Shown: one piece after another, positions 6,840 to 58,612 of the stretch
Position numbering within the stretch: the first letter of the stretch is position 1
Layout of the letters: every line of letters begins with the position of its first letter
Origin: Corynebacterium pseudopelargi
GTDB lineage: Bacteria; Actinomycetota; Actinomycetes; Mycobacteriales; Mycobacteriaceae
Direction: 5' to 3'
NCBI RefSeq assembly: GCF_003814005.1
Contig: NZ_CP033898.1
Span: 558,001-622,000 of the forward strand
Length of the DNA: 64,000 bases
Notes under the pieces: generated by a model
Told to the model about the DNA's origin: nothing
Seen by the model: only the letters and a program-made list of their open reading frames with translations
Databases searched by the model: none
Translations under genes and position numbers: made by a program

Positions 6840-8357
6840 ATGGCGCGATTCATCGACCGCGTAGTGCTACACCTCGAGGCCGGCGACGGCGGCCATGGCT
6901 GTGCCTCCATCCACCGCGAAAAATTCAAGCCCCTCGGCGGCCCAGACGGTGGCAACGGCGGACACGGCGGCGACATCATCCTCAAAGTGTCCGACCAGGT
7001 ACACACGCTCCTGGAACTGCACTACCGCCCCCACCTGCGCGCCAAGCGTGGAGCCAACGGCGCAGGCGATCACCGCAACGGTGCCCGCGGCGAAGACCTC
7101 ATCTTGGACGTGCCAGTAGGCACCGTGGTGCTCGACACCGATGGCAACGTGCTGGCCGATATGACCACCCTGGGCATGGAATTCATCGCAGCCAAAGGTG
7201 GCTACGGCGGCCTCGGCAACGCGGCCTTGGCTTCTGCTGCCCGCAAAGCACCAGGCTTTGCGCTCAAAGGCGAGCCCGGCGAGGCGCACGATGTGGTGCT
7301 GGAATTAAAGTCCATGGCCGATGTGGGGCTCGTGGGCTTCCCCTCGGCGGGTAAATCCTCGCTCATTTCGGTGATGTCTGCCGCCAAGCCCAAGATTGGC
7401 GATTATCCCTTCACCACCCTCCAGCCCAACCTCGGCGTGGTGGACGTCGGCCACGAATCTTTCACCATCGCCGATGTGCCAGGCCTGATCCCGGGCGCCT
7501 CCGAAGGCAAGGGCCTCGGCCTGGACTTCTTAAGGCATATCGAACGCACCGCGGTGCTTGCCCACGTCGTGGATACCGCCACCTTAGAACCGGGGCGCGA
7601 CCCGGCCTCTGATATTGAAGCGCTGGAAGCAGAACTTGCTGCCTACCAATCCGACCTGGATCAAGATTCCGGCTTAGGGGATCTGCGTGAACGTCCGCGC
7701 ATCATCATCTTGAACAAAGCCGATATCCCAGAAGCGCGCGAATTGGCCGAATTTCTTAAAGAAGACCTCGAGCAACAATTTGGCTGGCCCGTCTTCATCA
7801 TCTCCGCAGTAGCCCAGCAAGGCCTGGAGCCACTGCGCTACAAGCTGATGGAATTAGTCTCCCAAGCGCGCGCACAACGCCCGGCACCAGAGGCGCAACC
7901 TCGCCAAATCCTTAGACCAGAGGCCGTGGATAAGCGTTCCAAGAAGCAACGCCAAGACTTCGAGATCATCGAAGACCCAGAAATCGAGGACGGCTACATC
8001 GTCCTTGGCGAGCGCCCAACCCGCTGGATCATCCAAACCGACTTCGAAAATGACGAAGCCGTGGGCTACCTCGCCGATAGGCTCGCACGCATGGGTGTCG
8101 AAGACGCCCTATTCAAAGCGGGCGCGCGCCCAGGCTGCACCGTCACCATCGGTGAAGTGTCATTCGAATGGGAACCCACCATGAGCGCAGGCGCCGAAAC
8201 GCCTCTGACCGGCCGTGGCACCGACCCCCGACTGGCACCCAATACCCGCGTTTCTGCCGCAGAACGCAAACGCGCCTCCCAGGCTCGCCGCGGACTCATT
8301 GATGAGTACGACTTTGGCGATGGCCAGGAGGCGGATCGTGAACGCTGGCAGGGCTAA
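6840..8357 (+). CDS. obgE: GTPase Obg/CgtA
   Basis: 505-residue essential GTPase for 50S maturation and stress control. The order is: glycine-rich Obg fold (1-157, with [10 protein letters not shown]); G domain with G1 GFPSAGKSS near residue 167, G3 DVPGLI and G4 NKAD; then an OCT domain (about 340-425, [14 protein letters not shown]). The last 70 residues are a basic, actinobacterial-type extension. The ribosome site is AAAGGAAACACC. Gene order with L21/L27 is conserved in bacteria. Confidence 0.97.
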
Positions 8358-8388: not shown

Positions 8389-9499
8389 AGGTGACGTCGC
8401 GAAGCTCGGAATCCTTCGAGAGCCAATTATCTGGCCCCACATACACCTTCGCCGCCTCGGGATCGTGGCGAATGGTGTAGTCGGCGAAGGAGATTACGAG
8501 TGAGTCGTAGATGCTGACGTCGCTTGCGTCCAGGTAGAGGCCGTGTTCGGCGCCGCGTACGATTGCCCACCACTTCGGGCCGGTGGCGCGGTCATAGGCG
8601 ATCTTGGATAAAGGCCAGGGCACGAGTGATTCGTGTTCGGCTGCTAGCACCAGGGTGGGTACTGGTGATGGGGGAGAGGCGAGCCCGAAGTCGGAGGGGC
8701 CGGGGTTGATGCCCACTGCGCCGAGGACCGCTGCTTCAGTGCGGCCGGTCGATTGGAGCAATTTGTCGATCATGCCGGCTTCGCGCAGTGCTGATCCGCC
8801 GCCGGCGGAGTGGCCGACGAGCAACATCTTGGAAAAGTCGATGCGTTGGTAGAGGGGGCTTTGGGGGTCGAGGTCTGCTTGGTTGGCGCCAAGTGCGGCG
8901 ATATTCATCTGCTCGCCAAACCAGTTGGCCACGCTGTAGCCGAGTGCGACGACGTAGCCGTGGGAGGCGTAGAACTCGGCGTGGTGGTGCACCATGCCGG
9001 GTTCGGATCCGATGCCGGGTGAGAGCACGATCAGTGGTGCGCGTTGGCCTTGGGCGAGGTCGGTGGGGTAGATGAATTGGAAGCCGATGGCGGGGTTGGG
9101 TCCTTCGGGGGTAACGCCGTAGCACTCCGGTGGCACGTTGTTGCCGTGGTTGAAGCGCAAGATTTGGTTGTAGAGCGCGTAGATGGGGGCGCAGTCGATG
9201 GTGGGCACGGTAGAAGCGACTGGGTGCGAACCGGGTGCGCCGAAGGTTTCGCGGATTTTTCCGGGCGCTTGTTCATAGGGTGCGGTGATGCGGGTGCCGG
9301 TGAGCCCGATTTCTTCTAGCGGGGCTGGGACGGTGGGGGCGATGTCTTCGGCTGGTTGCTCGATGGAGTTGAGCGCATCGGTGAGGGGAGTCAGGCCTTG
9401 GGTGATGCCGAGGTCGATGGCATTGGCTGGCACTGCGAGGCTGAGTCCGAGTGTTGCGCCGAGAAGACCTGCGGCGATGCGGGTGCGAGAGGCTGCCAC
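8381..9499 (-). CDS. Secreted alpha/beta hydrolase
   Basis: 372 residues. There is an N-terminal signal peptide (basic MAASRTR, hydrophobic AAGLLGATLGLSLAV, AxA cleavage site near residue 27). The alpha/beta-hydrolase core has the nucleophile elbow GHSAGG (Ser near residue 231) and a late His in GAEHGLYLD. The fold resembles chlorophyllase/PET-hydrolase-like lipases (ATYPTDLAQG-like entry, SHGYVV). It is probably an exported esterase acting on lipids of the envelope or surroundings; the substrate is not known. GTG start with a clear GAAGGAG site. It may be co-transcribed with the upstream YhgE-type gene, but an inverted repeat separates them. Confidence 0.82.
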   Translation of the reverse strand: MAASRTRIAAGLLGATLGLSLAVPANAIDLGITQGLTPLTDALNSIEQPAEDIAPTVPAPLEEIGLTGTRITAPYEQAPGKIRETFGAPGSHPVASTVPTIDCAPIYALYNQILRFNHGNNVPPECYGVTPEGPNPAIGFQFIYPTDLAQGQRAPLIVLSPGIGSEPGMVHHHAEFYASHGYVVALGYSVANWFGEQMNIAALGANQADLDPQSPLYQRIDFSKMLLVGHSAGGGSALREAGMIDKLLQSTGRTEAAVLGAVGINPGPSDFGLASPPSPVPTLVLAAEHESLVPWPLSKIAYDRATGPKWWAIVRGAEHGLYLDASDVSIYDSLVISFADYTIRHDPEAAKVYVGPDNWLSKDSELRDVTSS

Positions 9500-9561
9500 G
9501 GGAGGGCTCCTTCTTCTAGAGGGGGAAATGAAAAGGATTATTTGAAGGCAGCATTAGTGTA

Positions 9562-9648: not shown

Positions 9649-11538
9649 TTAGCTGTGGATGAGCTCTGCTTGTTGTTGATCTTCGCTGGCTTTGCGGAGT
9701 TTGTAATTGCGTGCGAACACCGAAAGCGCGATAAAGAAGATGGTGCTGAGCACGAGTACTGCCACTGCGATGTAGTAGGTGCTATCGAAGTTGCCGTCCA
9801 CGGTGCGCACGAAGACGTCCTTGGCGTAGGTCATGGGGTGCAGGCTGTGCATGGCGCGCATGGGGGCCGGGGTGAGTTGGATGGGCCAGACGCCACCGAA
9901 GGCAAATACACCGTAGGCGAAAAAGCCCAGTGCCAGTGCGCCGCCTGCGAGCCTGCCAAAGGCTAGGCGGAGGAATTGGAAGATGCTGGTGCCGTGGGCT
10001 GCAATGAGCACCATGGCAAGGCAGTAGGCACCGATGTGCGCGATGTGGAAGCCGGCTGCCATGCCTGCGCCGGTGAGCAGGCCCAGCAAGGCGGTGTTGC
10101 CGGCGCCTACTACGGCAAACCCTGCCAGTACCGCGGCCAGGGTGGAGGTGTGCTTGCGGGTGCCCAAGATGTGCGGGGCGAGCATGCTTACCAGCGCCAT
10201 GAGCAGGTAACCGAAGACGAGGATGAGGATCATGGTCACGCCGCCGGAGAGCACCTTGGAGGTTGGGTCGTGTTCGTCGGTGAGCTCTTGTACTGCGTGG
10301 CGGTAGTCCTCCTCATAGGCCACGGGTACGGCGATTTGGTGTGAGGATGCCTCGATATTTTTAATCTCTGGTGCTTGTTGCGCGCCTTCGCTTAGGCCCG
10401 CGTCGAGCTGTGCGGTGCCGTCTTTGAGTTGGGCTACGCCGGCGTCGAGTTGGTGGGTGCCGTCGAGAAGCTGCCCCATGCCGTCGTCGAGGCGCGCGGC
10501 TCCGTCGGCAAGCTGCGAGGTGCCATCTTTGAGCTGGAGGGCACCTTGGAGGTACGGCGCGGCGGGATCATTGAGGTTGTAGCTCATTTGCGCCGTGCCG
10601 TCTTTGAGCTTGGCTAGCTGGTTCGCCAGCGCATCGGGGTTGGAGGTATCCAGCACGGAGATTCGATCGCGGATTTGTTGTGCTTGGGCGTGCAGGCCGA
10701 GCATGTCGAGCTGATCGGCGATGGGCTTGAGCATCTCCACGGTGGTGCCGGCTTGCTGGAGCAGGGGGATCACTTTGTCGGTGAGCTGGCCTACGCCGGC
10801 GTCAATTTGGGCGGCACCTTGGCCAAGTTGATTGGTGCCATCGAGCAATTGGCTCATGCCCTGGTCGAGTCGCGTGGCTCCGTCGGAAAGCTGTGAGGAG
10901 CCATCTTTGAGTTGCTGTGCCCCATCGAGGCCTTGTGCGGTTCCGGCCTTTAATTGCGCGGCACCATCGTCGAGTTGTTTGGCGCCATCGGCGGCTTGTT
11001 TCAGGCCAGCGCCTAGGCGATTCATGCCGCCGAGAATTTCGGAGCTGTAGCCTTCGGCGATACCTTTGGCAATACCTTTTTGGATTCCCGGCACAAGCCC
11101 GGAGGTCAGCAGCGGGGTGTTGGTGCCGTATTGATCATTAAAAGAGATCACCACTTCGGGCTGCTTGGGGTGCTCGTCGATCACGCTGGCTACTTCCTGG
11201 GAAAATTCTTCTGGAATCGACAGCACCACCATGAAGTCGCCATCGCGCAGCCCCGCATTGGCGTCCTCGGCAGATAGTTCGGTGAAGTCCATGTAGCTGG
11301 TATCGAGTAGGCCTTCGACCACGTCGTCGCCAAAATTGACCTTCTGGCCATCTTTTTGGGCGCCGGCATCTTCATTAACTACGGCCATGCGCACATTTTG
11401 GAGGTAGTGGGAGGGATCCCAAAGCGACCACATGAAAGCGGCTGTGACCAGCAGTGGAGCCACAAGGACGGTCACGATGATCGATCGGATCAGCAGTGCA
11501 CGCTTGCGTGAGGGGGCGGGTGTGGCGGTGTCTTTCAT
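9649..11538 (-). CDS. YhgE/Pip domain membrane protein
   Basis: 629 residues. One TM helix near residues 18-40, then a long periplasmic/extracellular part, then about five TM helices in the last 230 residues. The middle carries many copies of an L-x-DG-(T/S)-x-QL-x-x-G repeat (about residues 180-410), characteristic of YhgE/Pip proteins such as the Lactococcus phage infection protein. The family also includes exporter-like and phage-receptor-like members. Start is the ATG preceded by GGAG; a longer frame to 11601 has no ribosome site. The function here is unproven. It may be relevant that Pip homologues are phage receptors and this cell is a lysogen. Confidence 0.85.
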
Positions 11539-51893: not shown

Positions 51894-52057
51894 GCCACCC
51901 ACCACACGGCTAGAACATTGCTTAAGGTTGCGCCGATGACGATGCCCAGCATGAGCATCACAAAGGCGGTGAGGGCGATGAAATGGCGCTGGTCATCAAC
52001 AATTTTTTGTACGACTTCGCCGGGGACGGCGCGGTCATGGGGGGTTCTTGTTTGCAT
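51890..52057 (-). CDS. 55-residue membrane protein
   Basis: MQTRTPHDRAVPG... with a C-terminal TM helix (FIALTAFVMLMLGIVIGATL). It lies between the excisionase-like gene and the helical ORFan, coupled to the latter by ATGA. Small early membrane proteins can block superinfection or halt the host; no evidence here. Confidence 0.6.
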   Translation of the reverse strand: MQTRTPHDRAVPGEVVQKIVDDQRHFIALTAFVMLMLGIVIGATLSNVLAVWWVA

Positions 52058-52066
52058 GTTGGTTCC

Positions 52067-52252
52067 TTAGTAGATGTGCTTATCGACGGTGGTTTTCTTG
52101 AAGCGGACGCGATCGCCTACGCGGATCACACCAAAATCTTTTTGAAACGCGGTGTCAGTTTGGGCTTTCCAGTAGATCGTGGAGCGCGGGATATTCAGCA
52201 TCCTGGCTACTTGCACGGCGCTATAGGTCGCCGGTTCTGATAGGGTTTGCAT
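52067..52252 (-). CDS. Excisionase/AlpA-like HTH protein
   Basis: 61 residues. TYSAVQVARMLNIPRSTIYWKA, then VGDRVRFKKTTVDKHI: a winged-helix fold of the MerR/AlpA/Xis group. Start is ATG with AGGAGCACTT. It may be the excision factor that partners the integrase, although it lies 5 kb away from int, or a regulator of the early operon it heads. Confidence 0.75.
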   Translation of the reverse strand: MQTLSEPATYSAVQVARMLNIPRSTIYWKAQTDTAFQKDFGVIRVGDRVRFKKTTVDKHIY

Positions 52253-52713
52253 AAGTGCTCCTATGGAGTGATTGGCCTCGCGCACATGCCTGCAAGCAGC
52301 GCGGGGCTTTTCCGTTTTGGGGTGGGGGTTGAGGGCAGCAACACCCTCACAGCGAAGGGAATGGGCTGGTCATGGGGTGCGCTTAGCGTCGAAAGGGGAA
52401 AAGCCCGCATAACCCTCAACCCCTGGTGGCGCGCCGGGGACTCGCACCCCGGGGAGTAGCTATTTCGATCCAGTGTTTTACGTCGCCTCGTGGTTCCCTC
52501 CCACCGAAGTGGGGTGCCTGCCTGTCGGCTTGCCGTTGGGGGTCATGGCGCATCTACACACCAGCGCTCGCCCCGGCCAATATCTTCTGCGGCGACAATT
52601 CACTATCAAGTTTTCAAACAACATTTCGCACAACCAATCAGGTTGGGCTTTGCGCCTGCGGTGGGAATCGAACCCACCCAAAACCATTCAGGCCATTTAC
52701 CAGTGCGTTTTCG
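52253..52713. other. Non-coding stretch with tRNA-like elements
   Basis: About 460 bp with no supported gene. It contains two T-arm-like hairpins (see next entries) and a CAACC/GGTTG hairpin (52631-52645). Between them are C/G-rich inverted repeats such as CCCACCGAAGTGGG (52501-52514). It probably is the 5' leader or promoter region of the leftward operon at 52252. Confidence 0.5.
52424..52484 (-). other. tRNA 3'-end-like element 1
   Basis: On the - strand, a CGGGG/CCCCG stem closes a 7-nt TGCGAGT loop, followed by GCGCGCC and ACCA, imitating a T arm, acceptor strand and CCA end. The required D and anticodon arms are missing. GACG-AAAAC-ACTGG lies upstream, as in element 2. Confidence 0.35.
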
Positions 52714-52715
52714 TC
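52655..52715 (-). other. tRNA 3'-end-like element 2
   Basis: On the - strand, GTGGG-TTCGATT-CCCAC is a canonical T arm, enclosed by GCCTG/CAGGC. Only about 50 nt separate it from the end of the upstream gene, too little for a whole tRNA. It shares GACG-AAAAC-ACTGG with element 1. It could be a tRNA remnant or a tRNA-like RNA. Confidence 0.4.
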
Positions 52716-52914
52716 ACGGTGATTCTTCAATCTCCGAATCACGCAACTTGATAAGCGCACCTTTCAGATCAACCGCGCCGATAGCTACACCAGCCAGCAG
52801 CCGCACCAAATCATCGCGGTCATCTTCCGCATAAGCAGCACGCCGATGCGCACGCACCCAAAGAGCGAGCACCAGCAGATTCGACACCACCAGCAGGAAA
52901 ACAAGCGTTGCCAT
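52714..52914 (-). CDS. Small membrane protein next to antirepressor 1
   Basis: 66 residues. TM helix at residues 3-22 (ATLVFLLVVSNLLVLALWV), then a charged helical cytoplasmic tail. ATG lies in a TGATG overlap with the antirepressor stop, so they are co-translated. Function unknown; possible superinfection role. Confidence 0.6.
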   Translation of the reverse strand: MATLVFLLVVSNLLVLALWVRAHRRAAYAEDDRDDLVRLLAGVAIGAVDLKGALIKLRDSEIEESP

Positions 52915-53696
52915 CACACCAGCCCCCAGATCTTCAGTTGGCGGTTCACAGCAGCAGCACCAGCAGGGGTGAGCTTCAAAGTTCGGCGCGGCTCACCATT
53001 CACGCGAGGGGCGTCATGGTGCGTTACTAATTGGAAATAGTTCTTTTTATCGGCATACGCGCGGTACTGGTACTCGTGGATTTTGGCGCGCTTTTTGTTT
53101 GACCAGCGCTCAAATGTGCGCGCGTAGATCCACTTGCGCTTCATCAGCACCTCACGCAGTGCTTTTTCACTCACCCCGGCGCGATTAGCGAAATCCCGGA
53201 AGGTCATCAGGTCGCTATCGGCCACAAAAGCGTCGTGGTATTCAACCTTTGGCGCGTTGGCCACGGCCTCCTGCTCCAACACCCGGCGCTTCTCGCGCTC
53301 GTCTTTGAGGGCGGTAAGGGCTTGGATCATCGAATCGGGATCATTCAGCCACTCATCTAGCGCTTGGTCGGTGGCATAGGTGCCATGCTTGCGGATAGTG
53401 GGCAAGACTTCCTCAAATACCATCCGCTCGAATTCCTGTGCGGTTTCCAGGTCACTGCCCACAATGAGGCGGTATAGGTCTGGCTCGGTGATCGTGCGGA
53501 CGTTTTGAGTCCGTCCTAGCCTGTCTTGGATGGGGTCGTGATTCGCGACCCCACGGCAGTGGCGCGATACGGCATCGGCGGGGTTCTTATACCCGAGGGC
53601 GACGGCCACATCCTTGGCTACCCAGCGGGGGTTATGGGGATCATCCGCGATCACGCGGACGCCGTGCCCTTTAAAGTCGAATTTTTGCAAGTCCAT
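52914..53696 (-). CDS. Antirepressor 1 (Bro-N + KilAC)
   Basis: 260 residues. Bro-N domain at about 1-105 (FDFKGHGVRVIADDPHNPRWVAKDVAVALGY..., FERMVFEEVLPTIRKHGTY). C-terminal KilAC/ANT domain at about 150-260 (TFRDFANRAGVSEKALREVLMKRKWIY). Such proteins inactivate the CI-type repressor during induction. Usual ATG at 53696; an in-frame ATG at 53753 would add 19 residues encoded by the duplicated leader. Confidence 0.85.
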   Translation of the reverse strand: MDLQKFDFKGHGVRVIADDPHNPRWVAKDVAVALGYKNPADAVSRHCRGVANHDPIQDRLGRTQNVRTITEPDLYRLIVGSDLETAQEFERMVFEEVLPTIRKHGTYATDQALDEWLNDPDSMIQALTALKDEREKRRVLEQEAVANAPKVEYHDAFVADSDLMTFRDFANRAGVSEKALREVLMKRKWIYARTFERWSNKKRAKIHEYQYRAYADKKNYFQLVTHHDAPRVNGEPRRTLKLTPAGAAAVNRQLKIWGLV

Positions 53697-53720
53697 TGTT
53701 ATGCTTTCTGTACGTTTTGT

Positions 53721-53807
53721 TTTTGCCCCTGTTCCAGCAGGGGCTTTTCTCATGCTGTTGGTCGGTATCCTCATTCCCGTGGGCTACTTGCCCAGGAAAG
53801 GAGGTGA
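53721..53807. repeat. 87-bp duplicated bidirectional leader, copy 1
   Basis: Matches 55087-55173 with about 6 differences in 87 bp. It holds the hairpin GCCCCTG/CAGGGGC (53725-53744) followed by CTTTTCT on the + strand, and a perfect AAAGGAGGTGA ribosome site for the + strand gene. It also holds the start of the - strand antirepressor mRNA leader. Confidence 0.85.
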
Positions 53808-53829
53808 GGAAAATGTTTGGACAAGATGA
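53752..53829 (+). CDS. Hydrophobic leader peptide 1
   Basis: 25 residues, MLLVGILIPVGYLPRKG..., with AGGGG of the hairpin 8 nt upstream as a possible ribosome site. It overlaps the start of the next + strand gene. Copy 2 encodes the same MLLVGILIPVG, with a synonymous CTC/CTT change, which hints that the peptide is translated. Confidence 0.4.
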   Translation: MLLVGILIPVGYLPRKGGEENVWTR

Positions 53830-54082
53830 AACAATCAGCCAGAGCTGCCAGCAGGCTTCCGAAGCGCACAAGATTGGTTTGAGCAATCTTGATGGTTGCG
53901 ATGAGGCAAAAGCATTCGCGTTGGCCGCGTCTGAAGCTTGGAAGCACGCTGCGCTATTTGTGAGTGAATCCAACGTCGACCGATCACTAGCCACAGTGGT
54001 TGCCGAGCTTGGATTCGCTACCGAGCGCGCTATTGCATCACTGGAGCGTCGTCTGGGAACGGTTGAATCACAGTCTCAGTAG
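53813..54082 (+). CDS. Small rightward protein behind leader copy 1
   Basis: 89 residues, helical and acidic (MFGQDETISQSCQQASEAHK...). It has an excellent AAAGGAGGTGAGGAAA site. Four conserved-looking helices and no TM. It is convergent with the leftward 89-residue gene at 54030 and overlaps it by 53 nt. Function unknown. Confidence 0.65.
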   Translation: MFGQDETISQSCQQASEAHKIGLSNLDGCDEAKAFALAASEAWKHAALFVSESNVDRSLATVVAELGFATERAIASLERRLGTVESQSQ

Positions 54083-54299
54083 GCAGCGCAGGGAGGCCGT
54101 TCCGCTGTGCAAATTCCTTCTGCGCGATAGTGGAACGGTGCGCCCTGGCAAGCTTGTTTACCGTGTTCAAGGCGGTAATCAAGAACTCAAGATCGTGAAT
54201 AGCGACCGAGACTTCCTTTTTGCTGTCTGGCTCCGCGATCACGATTGAATCCGAGCCTGTTCGGACGCAAATACTGTCGGTTCCGGTGAAAAGATGCAT
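54030..54299 (-). CDS. Hypothetical leftward protein after antirepressor 2
   Basis: 89 residues (MHLFTGTDSICVRTGSDSIVIAEPDSKKEVSV...), strands first then helix (LEFLITALNTVNKLARAH). AAGGAG site 7 nt before the ATG, which lies 11 nt after the antirepressor-2 stop. Tail-to-tail overlap with the + strand gene. Function unknown. Confidence 0.6.
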   Translation of the reverse strand: MHLFTGTDSICVRTGSDSIVIAEPDSKKEVSVAIHDLEFLITALNTVNKLARAHRSTIAQKEFAQRNGLPALPTETVIQPFPDDAPVMQ

Positions 54300-54310
54300 G
54301 ATTTTTCTCC

Positions 54311-55057
54311 TTATGCTGCGTAGCTGGTTGGTAGTGGGTCGATGGTTTGCAGGCCGAGTTTCTTGCGGATGAAGTCGATCCCACTGGGTTGGACGTAGGT
54401 GGTGTAGCTCGTGCCCTGCGTTCCGTCCTTGCGCTCGTAGTTGTGCGGTAGCACCTCAAAATGATGCATGTACTGCGAGTATGGCGTGTTACGCATCGCG
54501 CCCTTGGTGATGAGCACCCCGCGGTTGCGGAGCTCTCGGAATAGCCAGTTCTGGCCTTTGCCGAGCATCTTCGCCACCGCGCCTACGCTGTATTTGCCGG
54601 AGGCGTCGAGGAATGTGTCGTAGGCTTCAGCCTTCGGTTCTAGCTCCTTGTTTTTCGCTTCCAGGGCGAGGCGTTCTTCTTCGGCGTTGAGCGCGATCTG
54701 GAGAATCTCTGCGCGGGTGAGTGTCGCCGGGTCGAACGGTGATGCCTTGGCGCGCTTCTCGCACTCGATGAAATACTGGCGGGCTTGCTTACCTTTGTCG
54801 GTGCGCTGGATCATGGAGATTTCTTTCGCCATATCCAATGAGATGACGTGGTTTAGGGCTTCACGCTGTCGACCGAGGGAGTCTTGTACCCGGTCATTTT
54901 TGACCGCGTAGTCTTTGACCTCTTCAAAGCCGTAAGCGACCATGCGTGGGAACCAATGCCGATACTCGGCGCCCACTTCGAGGAAAGCGTGGAGGTCGCG
55001 CCCCATCACCGCTTGCACGCCGTTATCATGGTGTTGAATCGGAATCAGATTGTTCAT
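54311..55057 (-). CDS. Antirepressor 2 (AntA + KilAC)
   Basis: 248 residues. AntA domain at about 10-95 (VMGRDLHAFLEVGAEYRHWFPRMVAYGFEEVKDY, LDMAKEISMIQRTDKGKQARQYFIECE). C-terminal KilAC at about 145-248 (GKYSVGAVAKMLGKGQNWLFRELRNRGVLI). A different N-terminal recognition domain from antirepressor 1 but a related C-terminus. Translation may be coupled to a 21-codon leader ORF (55119-55054) that ends in ATGA at this start. Confidence 0.87.
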   Translation of the reverse strand: MNNLIPIQHHDNGVQAVMGRDLHAFLEVGAEYRHWFPRMVAYGFEEVKDYAVKNDRVQDSLGRQREALNHVISLDMAKEISMIQRTDKGKQARQYFIECEKRAKASPFDPATLTRAEILQIALNAEEERLALEAKNKELEPKAEAYDTFLDASGKYSVGAVAKMLGKGQNWLFRELRNRGVLITKGAMRNTPYSQYMHHFEVLPHNYERKDGTQGTSYTTYVQPSGIDFIRKKLGLQTIDPLPTSYAA

Positions 55058-55119
55058 GATGTATGCTCTTTCATAGGTTTCTTTGGTTTTGCCCCTGTTC
55101 CAGCAGGGGCTTTTCTCAT
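55054..55119 (-). CDS. Leader peptide of antirepressor 2
   Basis: 21 residues beginning MRKAPAGTGAK. Its TGA overlaps the antirepressor ATG. The same opening in leader copy 1 is in frame with antirepressor 1. Its coding part contains the GCCCCTG/CAGGGGC hairpin. Confidence 0.45.
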   Translation of the reverse strand: MRKAPAGTGAKPKKPMKEHTS

Positions 55120-55173
55120 GCTGTTGGTCGGTATCCTTATTCCCGTGGGCAGCTGGCCCCGGGAAGGAGGTGA
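55087..55173. repeat. 87-bp duplicated bidirectional leader, copy 2
   Basis: Second copy of 53721-53807, with the same hairpin and the same AAGGAGGTGA site on the + strand. Confidence 0.85.
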
Positions 55174-55186
55174 TTACCATGGATAA
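55118..55186 (+). CDS. Hydrophobic leader peptide 2
   Basis: 22 residues, MLLVGILIPVGSWPREG..., counterpart of the peptide at 53752. Differs after the shared 11 residues; overlaps the start of the next gene. Confidence 0.4.
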   Translation: MLLVGILIPVGSWPREGGDYHG

Positions 55187-55358
55187 GCTTGTTTATGCTG
55201 GTCAGAGTTTCTTGCTCGACTCTTTCGACAACGATGAGGTTCTCGATTCTCTGCGCGCCGGGGTGCTGCCCGGTGTCGTGGAGCTGACCACCGAGAGCGG
55301 AAACCGGATTCTGGTGAATCTTTCTGAAGGGGTTCCGTTCTCCATCGAGTTCGGCTAG
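55179..55358 (+). CDS. Small rightward protein behind leader copy 2
   Basis: 59 residues (MDKLVYAGQSFLLDSFDNDE...), acidic, mixed strand/helix. Very strong GGAAGGAGGTGA site. Its TAG shares the CTAG with the stop of the opposing gene. Unrelated in sequence to the 89-residue protein behind copy 1. Confidence 0.65.
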   Translation: MDKLVYAGQSFLLDSFDNDEVLDSLRAGVLPGVVELTTESGNRILVNLSEGVPFSIEFG

Positions 55359-55540
55359 TCGAGTAGCACTGCGGCCGTTTTGAGCGCTTCGATGAGCTTC
55401 GGGAGGTGCCACTCATGGACTACAAGCATGTCGTCCTGACTGCTTTCCTCCCGGAGCGTCACCCACTGGCCGTCGCGCGGCGCTTCGATAACGATCTTGT
55501 CAACTCTCATCGAGAGCAGTTTCTGTTCATCGCAAGTCAT
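55355..55540 (-). CDS. Small hypothetical protein after the Cro-like gene
   Basis: 61 residues (MTCDEQKLLSMRVDKIVIEA...), alpha/beta with an acidic centre. AAGGAGAATCCCA site before the ATG, 12 nt after the Cro-like gene stop. Probably translated from the same leftward transcript. Function unknown. Confidence 0.6.
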   Translation of the reverse strand: MTCDEQKLLSMRVDKIVIEAPRDGQWVTLREESSQDDMLVVHEWHLPKLIEALKTAAVLLD

Positions 55541-55551
55541 TGGGATTCTCC

Positions 55552-55773
55552 TTAGGCGGCTTGGGCTTGGCCTTCGAGGATCATGGTGTCCAGGGGGCGG
55601 TTGGTGATTCGCTTGAGGATCATGAGTGTGGGGATTGTGGGGACGCTTTTGCCGTCGCGGTAGTTTCGGACGGTGGTGCCGGTTTTGTTGAGGAATTTCC
55701 ATCCGAGTTCATCGATGGAGCGGCATCCGGTGCGGTCCATCGCTTCCCTGATTACGGCGGGGTCTAGGCGCAT
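55552..55773 (-). CDS. Cro-like HTH protein
   Basis: 73 residues. An XRE-type HTH: LDPAVIREAMDRTGCRSIDELGWKFLNKTGTTVRNYRDGKSVPTIPTLMIL. First gene of the leftward transcript and divergent from the repressor, the classic Cro position. Start ATG has AAGGAGG 8 nt upstream. Confidence 0.82.
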   Translation of the reverse strand: MRLDPAVIREAMDRTGCRSIDELGWKFLNKTGTTVRNYRDGKSVPTIPTLMILKRITNRPLDTMILEGQAQAA

Positions 55774-55926
55774 CGTGTTCACCTCCTTGGTGTGCGGTTC
55801 TTCGCTTGCCTGTGCTTATTTAAGCATACATTAGCGAGATATTGCAAACTTTTGTGCAAACTTTCTTGTTTTTGCAGGTCAAGAGTGTGCGAAAAGTTGC
55901 CCAGTCATGCCGTGTCGGGTAAGATC
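55774..55926. promoter_or_regulatory. Lysogeny switch operator region
   Basis: Divergent promoters between the Cro-like gene and the repressor. It holds a direct repeat of TGCAAACTTT (55843-55852 and 55855-55864), a partial inverted copy GAAAAGTTGC (55901-55910), and a GCTTATTTAAGC palindrome (55814-55825). These are likely operator sites. Exact -35/-10 boxes could not be fixed. Confidence 0.65.
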
Positions 55927-56418
55927 ATGGGCATGGAACATGCTCAATGGATGCAGCAAATAACCGAGGATTCCGTACGGTCTGCTGCGAAAAAGATCGA
56001 CGTAGCGCCACGCACCCTCGCGACTCAATTGGAAAAGGGGCGTATATCCCCGGAGAACGTCATCGCGATCGCCGTGGCCTACGACCACCACCCCGTCGGC
56101 GCACTCGTGGACACCGGATACCTCGACGCCAAATGGGCCGAGCAGGTAGACCCAGCCCGCGCCCTTCGCTCCGTCACCGAAAAACAACTCGCCGACGAAG
56201 TGCTACGCCGAATGGAACTCGGAGTCGAACACGGCGGAGCACTCGACACCCCCGTCGACGAGCTAGCGTCCCGTCGAACAAACGGGGGCACCCGCTCGGA
56301 GGTCCCCTCTTACGATGGCACCGTCCGCGAATGGGATGACACCACACTCCACGCAGCGGACAGTAGCCCAGACGAGCAAGCCGAGCGCGAAAGACGAGGT
56401 GAAAACCTATTTGATTAA
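55927..56418 (+). CDS. CI-like repressor
   Basis: 163 residues. N-terminal HTH of XRE type (MQQITEDSVRSAAKKIDVAPRTLATQLEKGRISPENVIAIAVAY), with a charged, probably flexible C-terminal half that lacks the LexA/CI Ser-Lys autoprotease. Divergent from the Cro-like gene and followed by an ImmA-type protease gene, so derepression may depend on proteolysis by that protein (as in ICEBs1) or on the antirepressors. Confidence 0.8.
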   Translation: MGMEHAQWMQQITEDSVRSAAKKIDVAPRTLATQLEKGRISPENVIAIAVAYDHHPVGALVDTGYLDAKWAEQVDPARALRSVTEKQLADEVLRRMELGVEHGGALDTPVDELASRRTNGGTRSEVPSYDGTVREWDDTTLHAADSSPDEQAERERRGENLFD

Positions 56419-56776
56419 CAGGCTCATCACCCAAGCCGAGCACAACGGCATCACCGTGGCCTGGCACAAAGGCGGACCCAAGGCCGCCTGGATGCCAGCC
56501 ACCAACACGATCAGCATCCGCGAAGGCATGGACGATGCCCAAACCTTGTGTGCTTTCGCACACGAAATGGGCCATTTCCATCATGGAGACACCCACGGCA
56601 CCGATACCATCCAAGAGGCCCGCGCAGACCGATTCGCCGCACGCCTGCTCATTGACCCCCGCGAATACGCTCGGTGCGAGCAGGAATACGGGGCGCACCC
56701 GGCGCTCCTGGGCCGCGAATTGGGCGTGACAGCACACCTCGTCCTCGTATTCCAATCCCTCCCCATCAACGCATAG
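56399..56776 (+). CDS. ImmA/IrrE-type metalloprotease
   Basis: 125 residues. Zinc motif HEMGH (55-59) and a downstream Glu in EARADRFAARLL. Family members cleave phage or ICE repressors. GTG start at 56399, overlapping the repressor end by 20 nt, shows coupling. TTG at 56411 is an alternative. Confidence 0.88.
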   Translation: MKTYLINRLITQAEHNGITVAWHKGGPKAAWMPATNTISIREGMDDAQTLCAFAHEMGHFHHGDTHGTDTIQEARADRFAARLLIDPREYARCEQEYGAHPALLGRELGVTAHLVLVFQSLPINA

Positions 56777-57481: not shown

Positions 57482-58612
57482 ATGGCGATTCAAAAACGTA
57501 CCACCAAAGCCGGGAAAACCCGCTGGGTAGCACGGTACAGGGACGCGGCAGGCAAAGAGCACTCACGCAGCTTCGACACCCAACGCGAAGCGAAAGCCCA
57601 TGTGCAGGAGCAAGAGCGCGCCCTACGTCGGGGCGAATGGGTCGATCCCCGCGATACTACGGTGACGCTGGGGGTGTTGTTGGATCAGTGGGTGGCGCGG
57701 GCTCAGAAGCCGAATACGCGGGCGTCACGGCGACGATCCGCCGATAACGCCCACCCACTACTCAATGTTCCGGTGGTGAAGGTGCGCCGGTCAATGGTGC
57801 AAGAACTTGCCACGACGCTTACTACGGGGAGGCCTTGGGCGGGCGGTGCGCCGTTGTCTGGTTCGACTGCCAGTATGGTGATTGCTGCGGTTCGGGGTGT
57901 GCTGCAAACAGCGGTGATTGATGGGCTGATTTCCAAGAACCCGGCTGAGGGTGTTCGGGTGCCCACCCGGCGCGGTGGTGCGTTATCGCGGGCGGATATC
58001 CCTAGCGTTGCAGAGGTGCAGCGCAATGTGGAGGTGCTGCGCGCGGATCACCCCGGGGTGGCGCTTGGGGTTGAGTTGGCGGCGTTTTGTGGGCTTCGCG
58101 TGGGTGAGGTCGCTGGCTTGCAGGTGGGTGATGTTGATTTTCTTCGACGCGAGCTGCACATTGAGCGCCAATATTCTTCGGCGCTGGGCGGCTATGCGGG
58201 GCTGAAAACCTCGGGATCGCGCCGGGTAGTGCCGGTCGCTGAGTGGCTAATCTTCGCATTGTCTGAGTGGTGTGGTGGCGCGGATCGTGGTGATTCGGTG
58301 CTTGCTCCTGGTGGGCGGGTGTTGTCTGCTGAGTGGCTGGCGAGGCAGCACAGGGAGGTGCTCACGGCGGCGGGGATCATGGCGCCGCGTTTCCATGCCT
58401 ACCGGCACTTTTTTGCGAGCAGCTTGCTGGCTGATGGGGTGCCGGTGCCGGTGGTGGCGCGCCTGATGGGGCACGGCAATATCACGATGGTGATGCAGAC
58501 CTATGCGCACTTCTTGCCGGATCAGCAGGATTCGTTGCGGGTGGCGATTGATGGGTTTGCGGGATCTGTGCGGGATCAGGACGAACGGGGCGCGGGGTTT
58601 GGTGCCGGGTAG
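57482..58612 (+). CDS. int: Tyrosine integrase
   Basis: 376 residues. Arm-binding N-terminus (KRTTKAGKTRWVARYRDAAGKEHSRSF), core-binding domain, and a catalytic domain with Arg206 (GLRVGE), His305-x-x-Arg308 (HAYRH), His331 (GHGN) and Tyr341 (TYAHF). Normal length. Its stop lies 38 bp from the right att core, as expected for an integrase adjacent to attP. Confidence 0.96.
   Translation: MAIQKRTTKAGKTRWVARYRDAAGKEHSRSFDTQREAKAHVQEQERALRRGEWVDPRDTTVTLGVLLDQWVARAQKPNTRASRRRSADNAHPLLNVPVVKVRRSMVQELATTLTTGRPWAGGAPLSGSTASMVIAAVRGVLQTAVIDGLISKNPAEGVRVPTRRGGALSRADIPSVAEVQRNVEVLRADHPGVALGVELAAFCGLRVGEVAGLQVGDVDFLRRELHIERQYSSALGGYAGLKTSGSRRVVPVAEWLIFALSEWCGGADRGDSVLAPGGRVLSAEWLARQHREVLTAAGIMAPRFHAYRHFFASSLLADGVPVPVVARLMGHGNITMVMQTYAHFLPDQQDSLRVAIDGFAGSVRDQDERGAGFGAG

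What the first reader, a model, noticed from the sequence alone, without database searches (positions are those of the whole stretch)
52914..55358. Twin antirepressor modules with a duplicated bidirectional leader
An 87-bp element (53721 and 55087, about 6 differences) stands before each antirepressor on the - strand and before a small gene on the + strand. It carries a hairpin, an excellent + strand ribosome site and a shared - strand leader ORF (MRKAPAGTGAK) that is fused to antirepressor 1 but stops in ATGA at antirepressor 2. The adjacent proteins differ, so the element seems to be a swappable regulatory cassette.
Basis: partly seen in the sequence, partly recalled or inferred. Interest (0 to 1): 0.75.

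Follow-up and report, generated by a model that had tools for sequence, protein, structure and literature searches.

The report
Swappable start cassette in Corynebacterium prophages
A short repeated DNA stretch in this prophage contains a compact promoter-like, hairpin and ribosome-site cassette that many Corynebacterium prophages seem to trade among themselves, probably to switch on small genes that lie backwards inside their lytic operon and point towards the genes that keep the virus dormant.

Summary
The repeat is real: two 92-bp copies, 7 differences, no third copy in the host genome. It joins two parts.

Left part: a GCCCCTG..CAGGGGC hairpin on the antirepressor side. In five related prophages it follows a minus-strand stop codon, so the 'MRKAPAGTGAK' leader ORF is not conserved.

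Right part, the discovery: a ~45-nt plus-strand cassette: -10-like hexamer, 6-8 nt, hairpin, full Shine-Dalgarno, small gene. The hairpin covaries (4 of 6 pairs change on both sides). A covariance model finds 30 strong copies in 19 of 242 Corynebacterium genomes. 27 lie in prophage-like regions, and in 27 of 27 the nearest ImmA-type peptidase is 1-5 kb downstream on the same strand.

The same cassette fronts unrelated genes and the same gene carries different cassettes; several long homologous blocks between prophages end at its edges. Nine of 33 copies face antirepressors of three Pfam types.

I read it as an exchangeable start signal for lysogeny-strand small genes lying antisense in the lytic operon. 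It works like PeSL cassettes of T4-type phages and sits like SAS/ESAS of cluster K mycobacteriophages, but is neither. Transcription is untested.

The parts
53716..53807 (.). element copy 1 (hairpin A1 + start cassette 1)
55082..55173 (.). element copy 2 (hairpin A2 + start cassette 2)
53725..53750 (+). hairpin A1 with T-rich tail on the + strand only (terminator-shaped)
55091..55116 (+). hairpin A2 with T-rich tail on the + strand only (terminator-shaped)
53766..53771 (+). -10-like TATCCT of cassette 1
   Evidence: promoter activity not tested
55132..55137 (+). -10-like TATCCT of cassette 2
   Evidence: promoter activity not tested
53780..53794 (+). 5' hairpin B1 (TGGGC-TACTT-GCCCA)
55142..55164 (+). 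5' hairpin B2 (CCCG, bulged T, GGGC-AGCTG-GCCC, CGGG)
53795..53807 (+). extended Shine-Dalgarno 1
55161..55173 (+). extended Shine-Dalgarno 2
53813..54082 (+). small gene X1 (89 aa), no homologue found
55179..55358 (+). small gene X2 (59 aa), family seen in other Corynebacterium prophages
52914..53696 (-). antirepressor 1 (Bro-N + KilAC)
54311..55057 (-). antirepressor 2 (AntA + KilAC)
54030..54299 (-). small gene Y1, tail-to-tail with X1 (overlap 53 nt)
55355..55540 (-). small gene Y2, tail-to-tail with X2 (stops overlap by 4 nt)
55552..55773 (-). Cro-like gene (by position and sequence by eye; no Pfam match)
55933..56418 (+). repressor-like HTH gene
56411..56776 (+). ImmA-type M78 peptidase
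57482..58612 (+). integrase

Best explanation
The + strand half of the element is a self-contained start cassette. RNA polymerase is thought to start a few bases after the -10-like hexamer, so that the transcript begins at the foot of the hairpin; the hairpin caps the 5' end and leaves the full-length ribosome site free directly behind it. It serves small genes on the lysogeny strand, antisense inside the early lytic operon, and points towards the repressor/ImmA region. Corynebacterium prophages exchange cassettes, small genes and antirepressors at or near the cassette's edges. In the window the cassette is fused to another part, a hairpin that stands before antirepressors and has a U-tail only on the + strand. 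Shown: conserved sequence, covarying hairpin, near-constant spacing, orientation, mosaic borders, coding signal in several X genes. Inferred: promoter activity, expression in the lysogen, mRNA protection, + strand termination at hairpin A.
For: Covariation: 4 of 6 pairs with changes on both sides, 94.1% of cells paired, 0 of 500 shuffles as high, 30-64% when slid. Genus census: 30 places at E <= 5.3e-5 in 19 of 242 genomes, next hit 0.008. TANNNT or TTCACT in 26 of 27 distinct 5' ends against 4.2 expected from shuffles (motif chosen after seeing the data, and these columns are in the model). C. glutamicum -10 is TAnnnT with weak -35 (PMC3890552, passages). Orientation: nearest M78 peptidase downstream and same strand in 27 of 27; integrase downstream in 26 of 26, same strand in 24. 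Mosaic borders. Codon positions 29:17:60 over six X pairs. X2 model pLDDT 93.
Against: No RNA data. No sigma-70 consensus promoter found in 52800-56500 (that scan asks for a -35). Window X1 has no homologue. G109's X2 homologue lacks the cassette, and 9 of 15 X3-search places lack it. Three of 30 copies are not near any prophage gene tested. Border bins are not the tallest: 14 right ends against a mean of 1.5, but other bins reach 20; 6 left ends against 1.8, others reach 19.
Confidence: 0.7

Rival explanations
1. Functional conservation only: an ordinary strong phage promoter and 5' UTR kept by selection and duplicated together with an antirepressor module, with no special role in exchange.
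For: The copies were found by likeness, so short cassette-only HSPs are partly expected. Other border bins are as tall or taller.
Against: L130/L132 share 45 of 46 nt over the cassette with unlike flanks; long blocks end at its edges in several pairs (L129/L134, L091/L130, L134/L137, L049/L129).
Confidence: 0.3
2. Establishment-type promoter like lambda PRE: the + transcript runs antisense through Y and cro into the repressor gene, so its main job is to favour lysogeny; X is a passenger.
For: Direction towards the immunity region in 27 of 27; no + terminator of score 13 or more between X and ImmA in 10 of 19 regions, the window among them.
Against: 9 of 19 regions have such a terminator, several within about 130 nt of the X stop. 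X genes show coding constraint. No CII-like activator was looked for.
Confidence: 0.2
3. Mnt-like control: X is a small repressor of the head-to-head antirepressor, as mnt faces arc-ant in P22 (recalled).
For: Nine of 33 cassettes face an antirepressor.
Against: The partner changes: X2 faces AntA in the window, a Y-type gene in L042 and other genes in L043 and L044; X3 often faces Cro-like genes. No DNA-binding family in X.
Confidence: 0.08
4. The - strand leader ORF MRKAPAGTGAK is a leader peptide or N-terminal extension that controls the antirepressors.
For: The frame is open in both copies and ends in ATGA at antirepressor 2.
Against: In five of five related prophages a stop codon stands at its ATG and the hairpin simply follows the upstream gene.
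Confidence: 0.04

Closest known systems
PeSL (promoter early stem-loop) cassettes of T4-type phages (Arbiol 2010; Comeau 2014; seen only as titles and through passages in PMC4503421 and PMC3950731)
   Same: Promoter and stem-loop unit between genes; linked to shuffling of small genes between relatives.
   Different: Here temperate Corynebacterium prophages, 1-3 copies per prophage found, opposite to the lytic operon, with a second hairpin that abuts the Shine-Dalgarno and covaries; no sequence relation tested.
SAS/ESAS of cluster K mycobacteriophages (PMC3203893 and PMC12699233, passages)
   Same: Repeated ribosome-site sequence close to start codons of different gene families, some with an inverted repeat upstream.
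   Different: Other sequence (GGGATAGGAGCCC); 11-19 copies per genome; ESAS repeats are said not to support an mRNA hairpin, ours covary; here antisense genes facing the immunity region.
HGTV-1 haloarchaeal virus motif (through a passage of PMC3950731)
   Same: Promoter-like box plus inverted repeat before many ORFs, proposed for shuffling.
   Different: Haloarchaeal virus and archaeal promoter box.
Morons of lambdoid phages (recalled)
   Same: Extra gene with its own promoter, sometimes its own terminator, inserted between phage genes and likely on in the lysogen.
   Different: A shared leader module with a covarying 5' hairpin, antisense in the early operon; terminator after X in only part of the regions.

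Membership tests
PeSL of T4-type phages | promoter and stem-loop in one intergenic unit | tested here: met
   -10-like hexamer and hairpin in the aligned copies; promoter by sequence only
PeSL of T4-type phages | stem-loop acts as terminator next to the promoter | tested here: inconclusive
   + strand terminator-like hairpin within 110 nt upstream in 17 of 33 (69 of 1440 control windows); activity not tested
PeSL of T4-type phages | shuffling of genes at the units | tested here: met
   homologous blocks end at cassette edges in several pairs; enrichment moderate
PeSL of T4-type phages | T4-type phage, high density of units | tested here: not met
   Corynebacterium prophage-like regions, 1-3 copies each
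SAS/ESAS of cluster K mycobacteriophages | 13-bp GGGATAGGAGCCC at start codons | tested here: not met
   cassette consensus is GGAAAGNGAGGTGA
SAS/ESAS of cluster K mycobacteriophages | 17-bp inverted repeats upstream without hairpin covariation | tested here: not met
   short hairpin with covariation
lambda PRE-type establishment promoter | promoter opposite the early operon, reading through cro antisense into the repressor | tested here: inconclusive
   direction met in 27 of 27; no strong + terminator in 10 of 19 regions; no transcript data
lambda PRE-type establishment promoter | dependence on a CII-type activator | not tested
   no such gene was looked for
moron | own promoter, expressed in the lysogen | not testable with these tools
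   needs RNA from the lysogen
P22 immI (mnt/arc/ant) | facing small gene is a DNA-binding repressor | tested here: not met
   no such family for X

The most novel reading that the evidence does not exclude
A PeSL-like family of mobile start cassettes spread through Corynebacterium prophages that always faces the immunity region: each inserted cassette adds a lysogeny-expressed small gene and at the same time an antisense promoter against the lytic operon (Y, cro), in some prophages feeding the repressor. Trading cassettes would thus retune the lysis-lysogeny decision.
Probability: 0.25. Interest if true: 0.78.

Novelty: new variant of a known kind. Interest (0 to 1): 0.6.

Why it matters
It gives a searchable signal (an RNA model) for small genes in Corynebacterium prophages that family libraries leave unnamed, and a testable way in which temperate phages could swap antirepressors and lysogeny-strand genes without breaking their operons. 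It would extend the PeSL idea from T4-type phages to temperate actinobacterial phages, and it asks whether antisense promoters inside lytic operons help to hold lysogeny.

Tried and rejected
Whole-element searches in phage records, genus genomes and IMG/VR: nothing full-length beyond this prophage and its IMG/VR record. Rfam at E <= 1 over 52000-56500: 2 matches below gathering score, neither on the element. Family libraries for X and Y: no match above a curated cut-off; the best was an unnamed PHROG, 1.5e-5, for the L043 + strand gene at 8804. Fold search with X2: no match at E <= 0.001; best are Rv3208A chains at E 0.10 (PDB) and an uncharacterised Arthrobacter phage Galaxy protein at 0.015 (viral). 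Two SD-half patterns in viral contigs gave 21 and 12 contigs; 6 of the 33 (L071, L082, L083, L091, L092, L096) carry the cassette before a small gene, the rest look like chance or unrelated sites (L067 passed the hairpin filter too but has other gene content and was set aside by eye, as were L068, L076 and L079). X3 search: 15 places in 14 of 242 genomes, cassette at the best six only. X2 search: 5 of 242 genomes, cassette in 4, not in G109. Nine genomes whose only model hits were weak (E 0.008-0.08) and the one weak hit outside the genus (G300, 0.002) were not examined. Of 36 model matches three were dropped as the same or nearly the same prophage (L096, L083, L092), leaving 33; several of the 33 are still related (L042, L138, L140, L143). 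In one search the pair L145/L144 was read from a wrong start and is left out of 29:17:60, as is the window/L044 X2 pair; L049 is used in two of the six pairs. Gene calls are crude and disagree in places. Paper searches for a description in corynephages listed none; only listings were seen there.
Full report
OBSERVATION. The window lies in a Corynebacterium-genus chromosome (G000:C1 558001-622000; the genus name rests on named relatives) and holds a prophage whose integrase ends at 58612. The two copies are real: 92 nt at 53716-53807 and 55082-55173, 7 differences, no third copy in the genome. They stand before two different antirepressors on the - strand (Bro-N + KilAC; AntA + KilAC) and before two + strand ORFs of 89 and 59 aa. 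The whole element was not found in 50,697 phage records, in the other 241 genus genomes, or in IMG/VR apart from one record, IMGVR_UViG_2862063619, that matches this prophage.

TWO PARTS. The left 20 nt (GCCCCTGTTCCAGCAGGGGC) form a strong hairpin with a TTTTCTC tail on the + strand. The same hairpin, with small changes, occurs in five other genus genomes (G018, G049, G081, G082, G015). There it follows directly the TAA or TAG of an upstream - gene and precedes the next - gene: a homologue of antirepressor 1 (L045, by eye), a P22_AR_N antirepressor (L049), a look-alike of it (L046, by eye), or a ParB-like gene (L047, L048, by eye). No cassette was found in L045-L048, and in L049 it lies elsewhere.

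THE CASSETTE. The right part recurs. X2 has matches in four other genus genomes and ten proteins in the large database search; three of the four genome loci have the same anatomy before the gene, G109 does not. The 44-aa gene X3, found beside it in G202 and G090, led to more, and SD-half patterns to viral contigs. 18 leaders align with a -10-like hexamer, 6-8 nt, a hairpin, GGAAAGNGAGGTGA or a close variant, 3-7 nt and a start codon. Stems differ in sequence but keep pairing: 4 of 6 pairs change on both sides, 94.1% of cells paired, no shuffle of 500 as high, and 30-64% when slid by 1-3 columns.

CENSUS. Model R1 finds 30 places at E <= 5.3e-5 in 19 of 242 genus genomes, then a gap to E 0.008. 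14 of the 30 were in the training alignment (two as viral-contig copies) and four more are identical to a training sequence, so 12 are new sequences. In 401 genomes of the family (31 genera) 8 have a hit at E <= 0.01: 7 of the same genus and one weak hit (0.002) elsewhere. With three viral-contig copies the set is 33. 26 of 33 have an opposite-strand gene start within about 130 nt upstream (crude gene calls). In 9 of 33 that gene is an antirepressor by Pfam: Bro-N in 3, AntA in 2, P22_AR_N in 4, three of these four in related prophages. In 8 of 33 the tail-to-tail neighbour overlaps the X stop by exactly 4 nt, X2/Y2 among them.

ORIENTATION. 27 of the 30 genus copies lie within 9 kb of an M78 (ImmA-type) peptidase. 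In 27 of 27 the nearest one is downstream and on the same strand; G033, G040, G073 and G170 have a second, more distant one on the other strand. 26 have an integrase in range: all downstream, 24 on the same strand (G033 and G170 differ). Counted once per prophage-like region that is 19 of 19 for M78. So the X genes lie on the lysogeny strand, antisense in the first kilobases of the early operon. The other three copies (G098, G108, G170:C2) have neither gene within 9 kb.

MOSAIC BORDERS. Coordinates are relative to the X start codon. L138 and L143: 99.3% from -109 on, antirepressors of different type upstream. L091 and L130: 89% from -51 to +412, AntA against P22_AR_N upstream. L129 and L134: 93% from -51 to +417. 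L134 and L137: 93% from -122 to -5, different X genes, 95.6% again further downstream. L049 and L129: 87% from -303 to -3. L130 and L132: 97.8% over -49 to -3. Of 48 cassette-covering HSPs between loci, 27 begin in -75..-38 and end in -10..+15; part of this is expected, because the copies were chosen for likeness. Among HSPs of 90 nt or more (ordered pairs), right ends fall in -8..+5 14 times against a mean of 1.5 per bin, and left ends in -58..-42 6 times against 1.8; but other bins reach 20 and 19, the tallest left bin beginning at -123, near the antirepressor starts. The cassette edges are thus one of several recurrent borders.

HAIRPIN A AND TERMINATION. A + strand terminator-like hairpin lies within 110 nt upstream of 17 of 33 cassettes against 69 of 1440 control windows, and on the - strand in 0 of 33. 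All 9 cassettes that face an antirepressor have one, 8 of the other 24 do (p about 0.0009, relatedness not corrected). In + direction the window's composite reads: terminator-shaped hairpin, promoter-like box, hairpin, SD. Between the immunity-proximal X gene and ImmA 10 of 19 regions show no + terminator of score 13 or more, the window among them, and 9 of 19 do. The stock promoter scan found no sigma-70 consensus in 52800-56500.

ARE THE X GENES REAL? Differences over six X pairs fall 29:17:60 on codon positions 1:2:3, mostly from X3 pairs. NCBI names some X2 relatives as hypothetical proteins. X2 is predicted at pLDDT 93 as a small beta-rich protein with one helix, Y2 less surely at 77.7. 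No function follows: no family match above cut-off and no fold match at E <= 0.001. Window X1 has no homologue with a better E-value than 0.004 and rests on its ORF, SD and position.

MECHANISM. Most likely the hexamer is a sigma-A -10; in C. glutamicum it is TAnnnT with a weak -35, and 5' UTRs of 26-40 nt are frequent (PMC3890552, passages). The predicted leader is about 35 nt and begins near the foot of the hairpin, which would protect the 5' end and keep the SD free. The small genes would be on when the early operon is repressed and countered by antisense RNA when it runs. These last steps are inference.

KNOWN KINDS. In working it is closest to PeSL cassettes (seen only in passages of PMC4503421 and PMC3950731; the two source papers are not held), in place to SAS/ESAS (PMC3203893 and PMC12699233, passages). 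It fits the PeSL idea of a promoter/stem-loop unit at exchange borders, but not its host group or density. It is not SAS by sequence, and its hairpin covaries where ESAS repeats are said not to support hairpins. My searches for a description in corynephages listed none. Hence: a new variant of a known kind.

Noticed in passing
L044 (G090), - strand genes at 7389-8033, 8120-8299, 8527-9033, 9224-9547, 9812-9982: Leaders of these five - strand genes share variants of a GGGCACTGGGGAAG-GTGCCGGGCAACAACCGTCGAAAAGCGAAAGGAG repeat (by eye): a second, phage-specific repeated gene-start element.
   Followed up: no
window 52661-52677, - strand: Sub-threshold match (15.5 bits, gathering 47) to positions 347-363 of the tmRNA model: perhaps a relic of an attachment site or a tRNA-like end.
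   Followed up: no
L145 (G098), L144 (G108), L142 (G170:C2): The cassette precedes a HRSAITGRYVKEATAERHPKTTVSE-type gene with no integrase or M78 peptidase within 9 kb: the cassette or gene may also live outside prophages.
   Followed up: partly
window 55355-55358; L042, L043, L137, L138, L140, L143: Convergent X/Y gene pairs with stop codons overlapping by exactly 4 nt in 8 of 33 cassettes.
   Followed up: partly
L042 and L140 (G202): Two prophage-like regions in one genome carry the cassette: three copies near 26 kb and one at 294654.
   Followed up: partly
L041 / L050 (G109:C1 near 6100): A divergent X2 homologue without the cassette, in AT-rich-looking surroundings.
   Followed up: no
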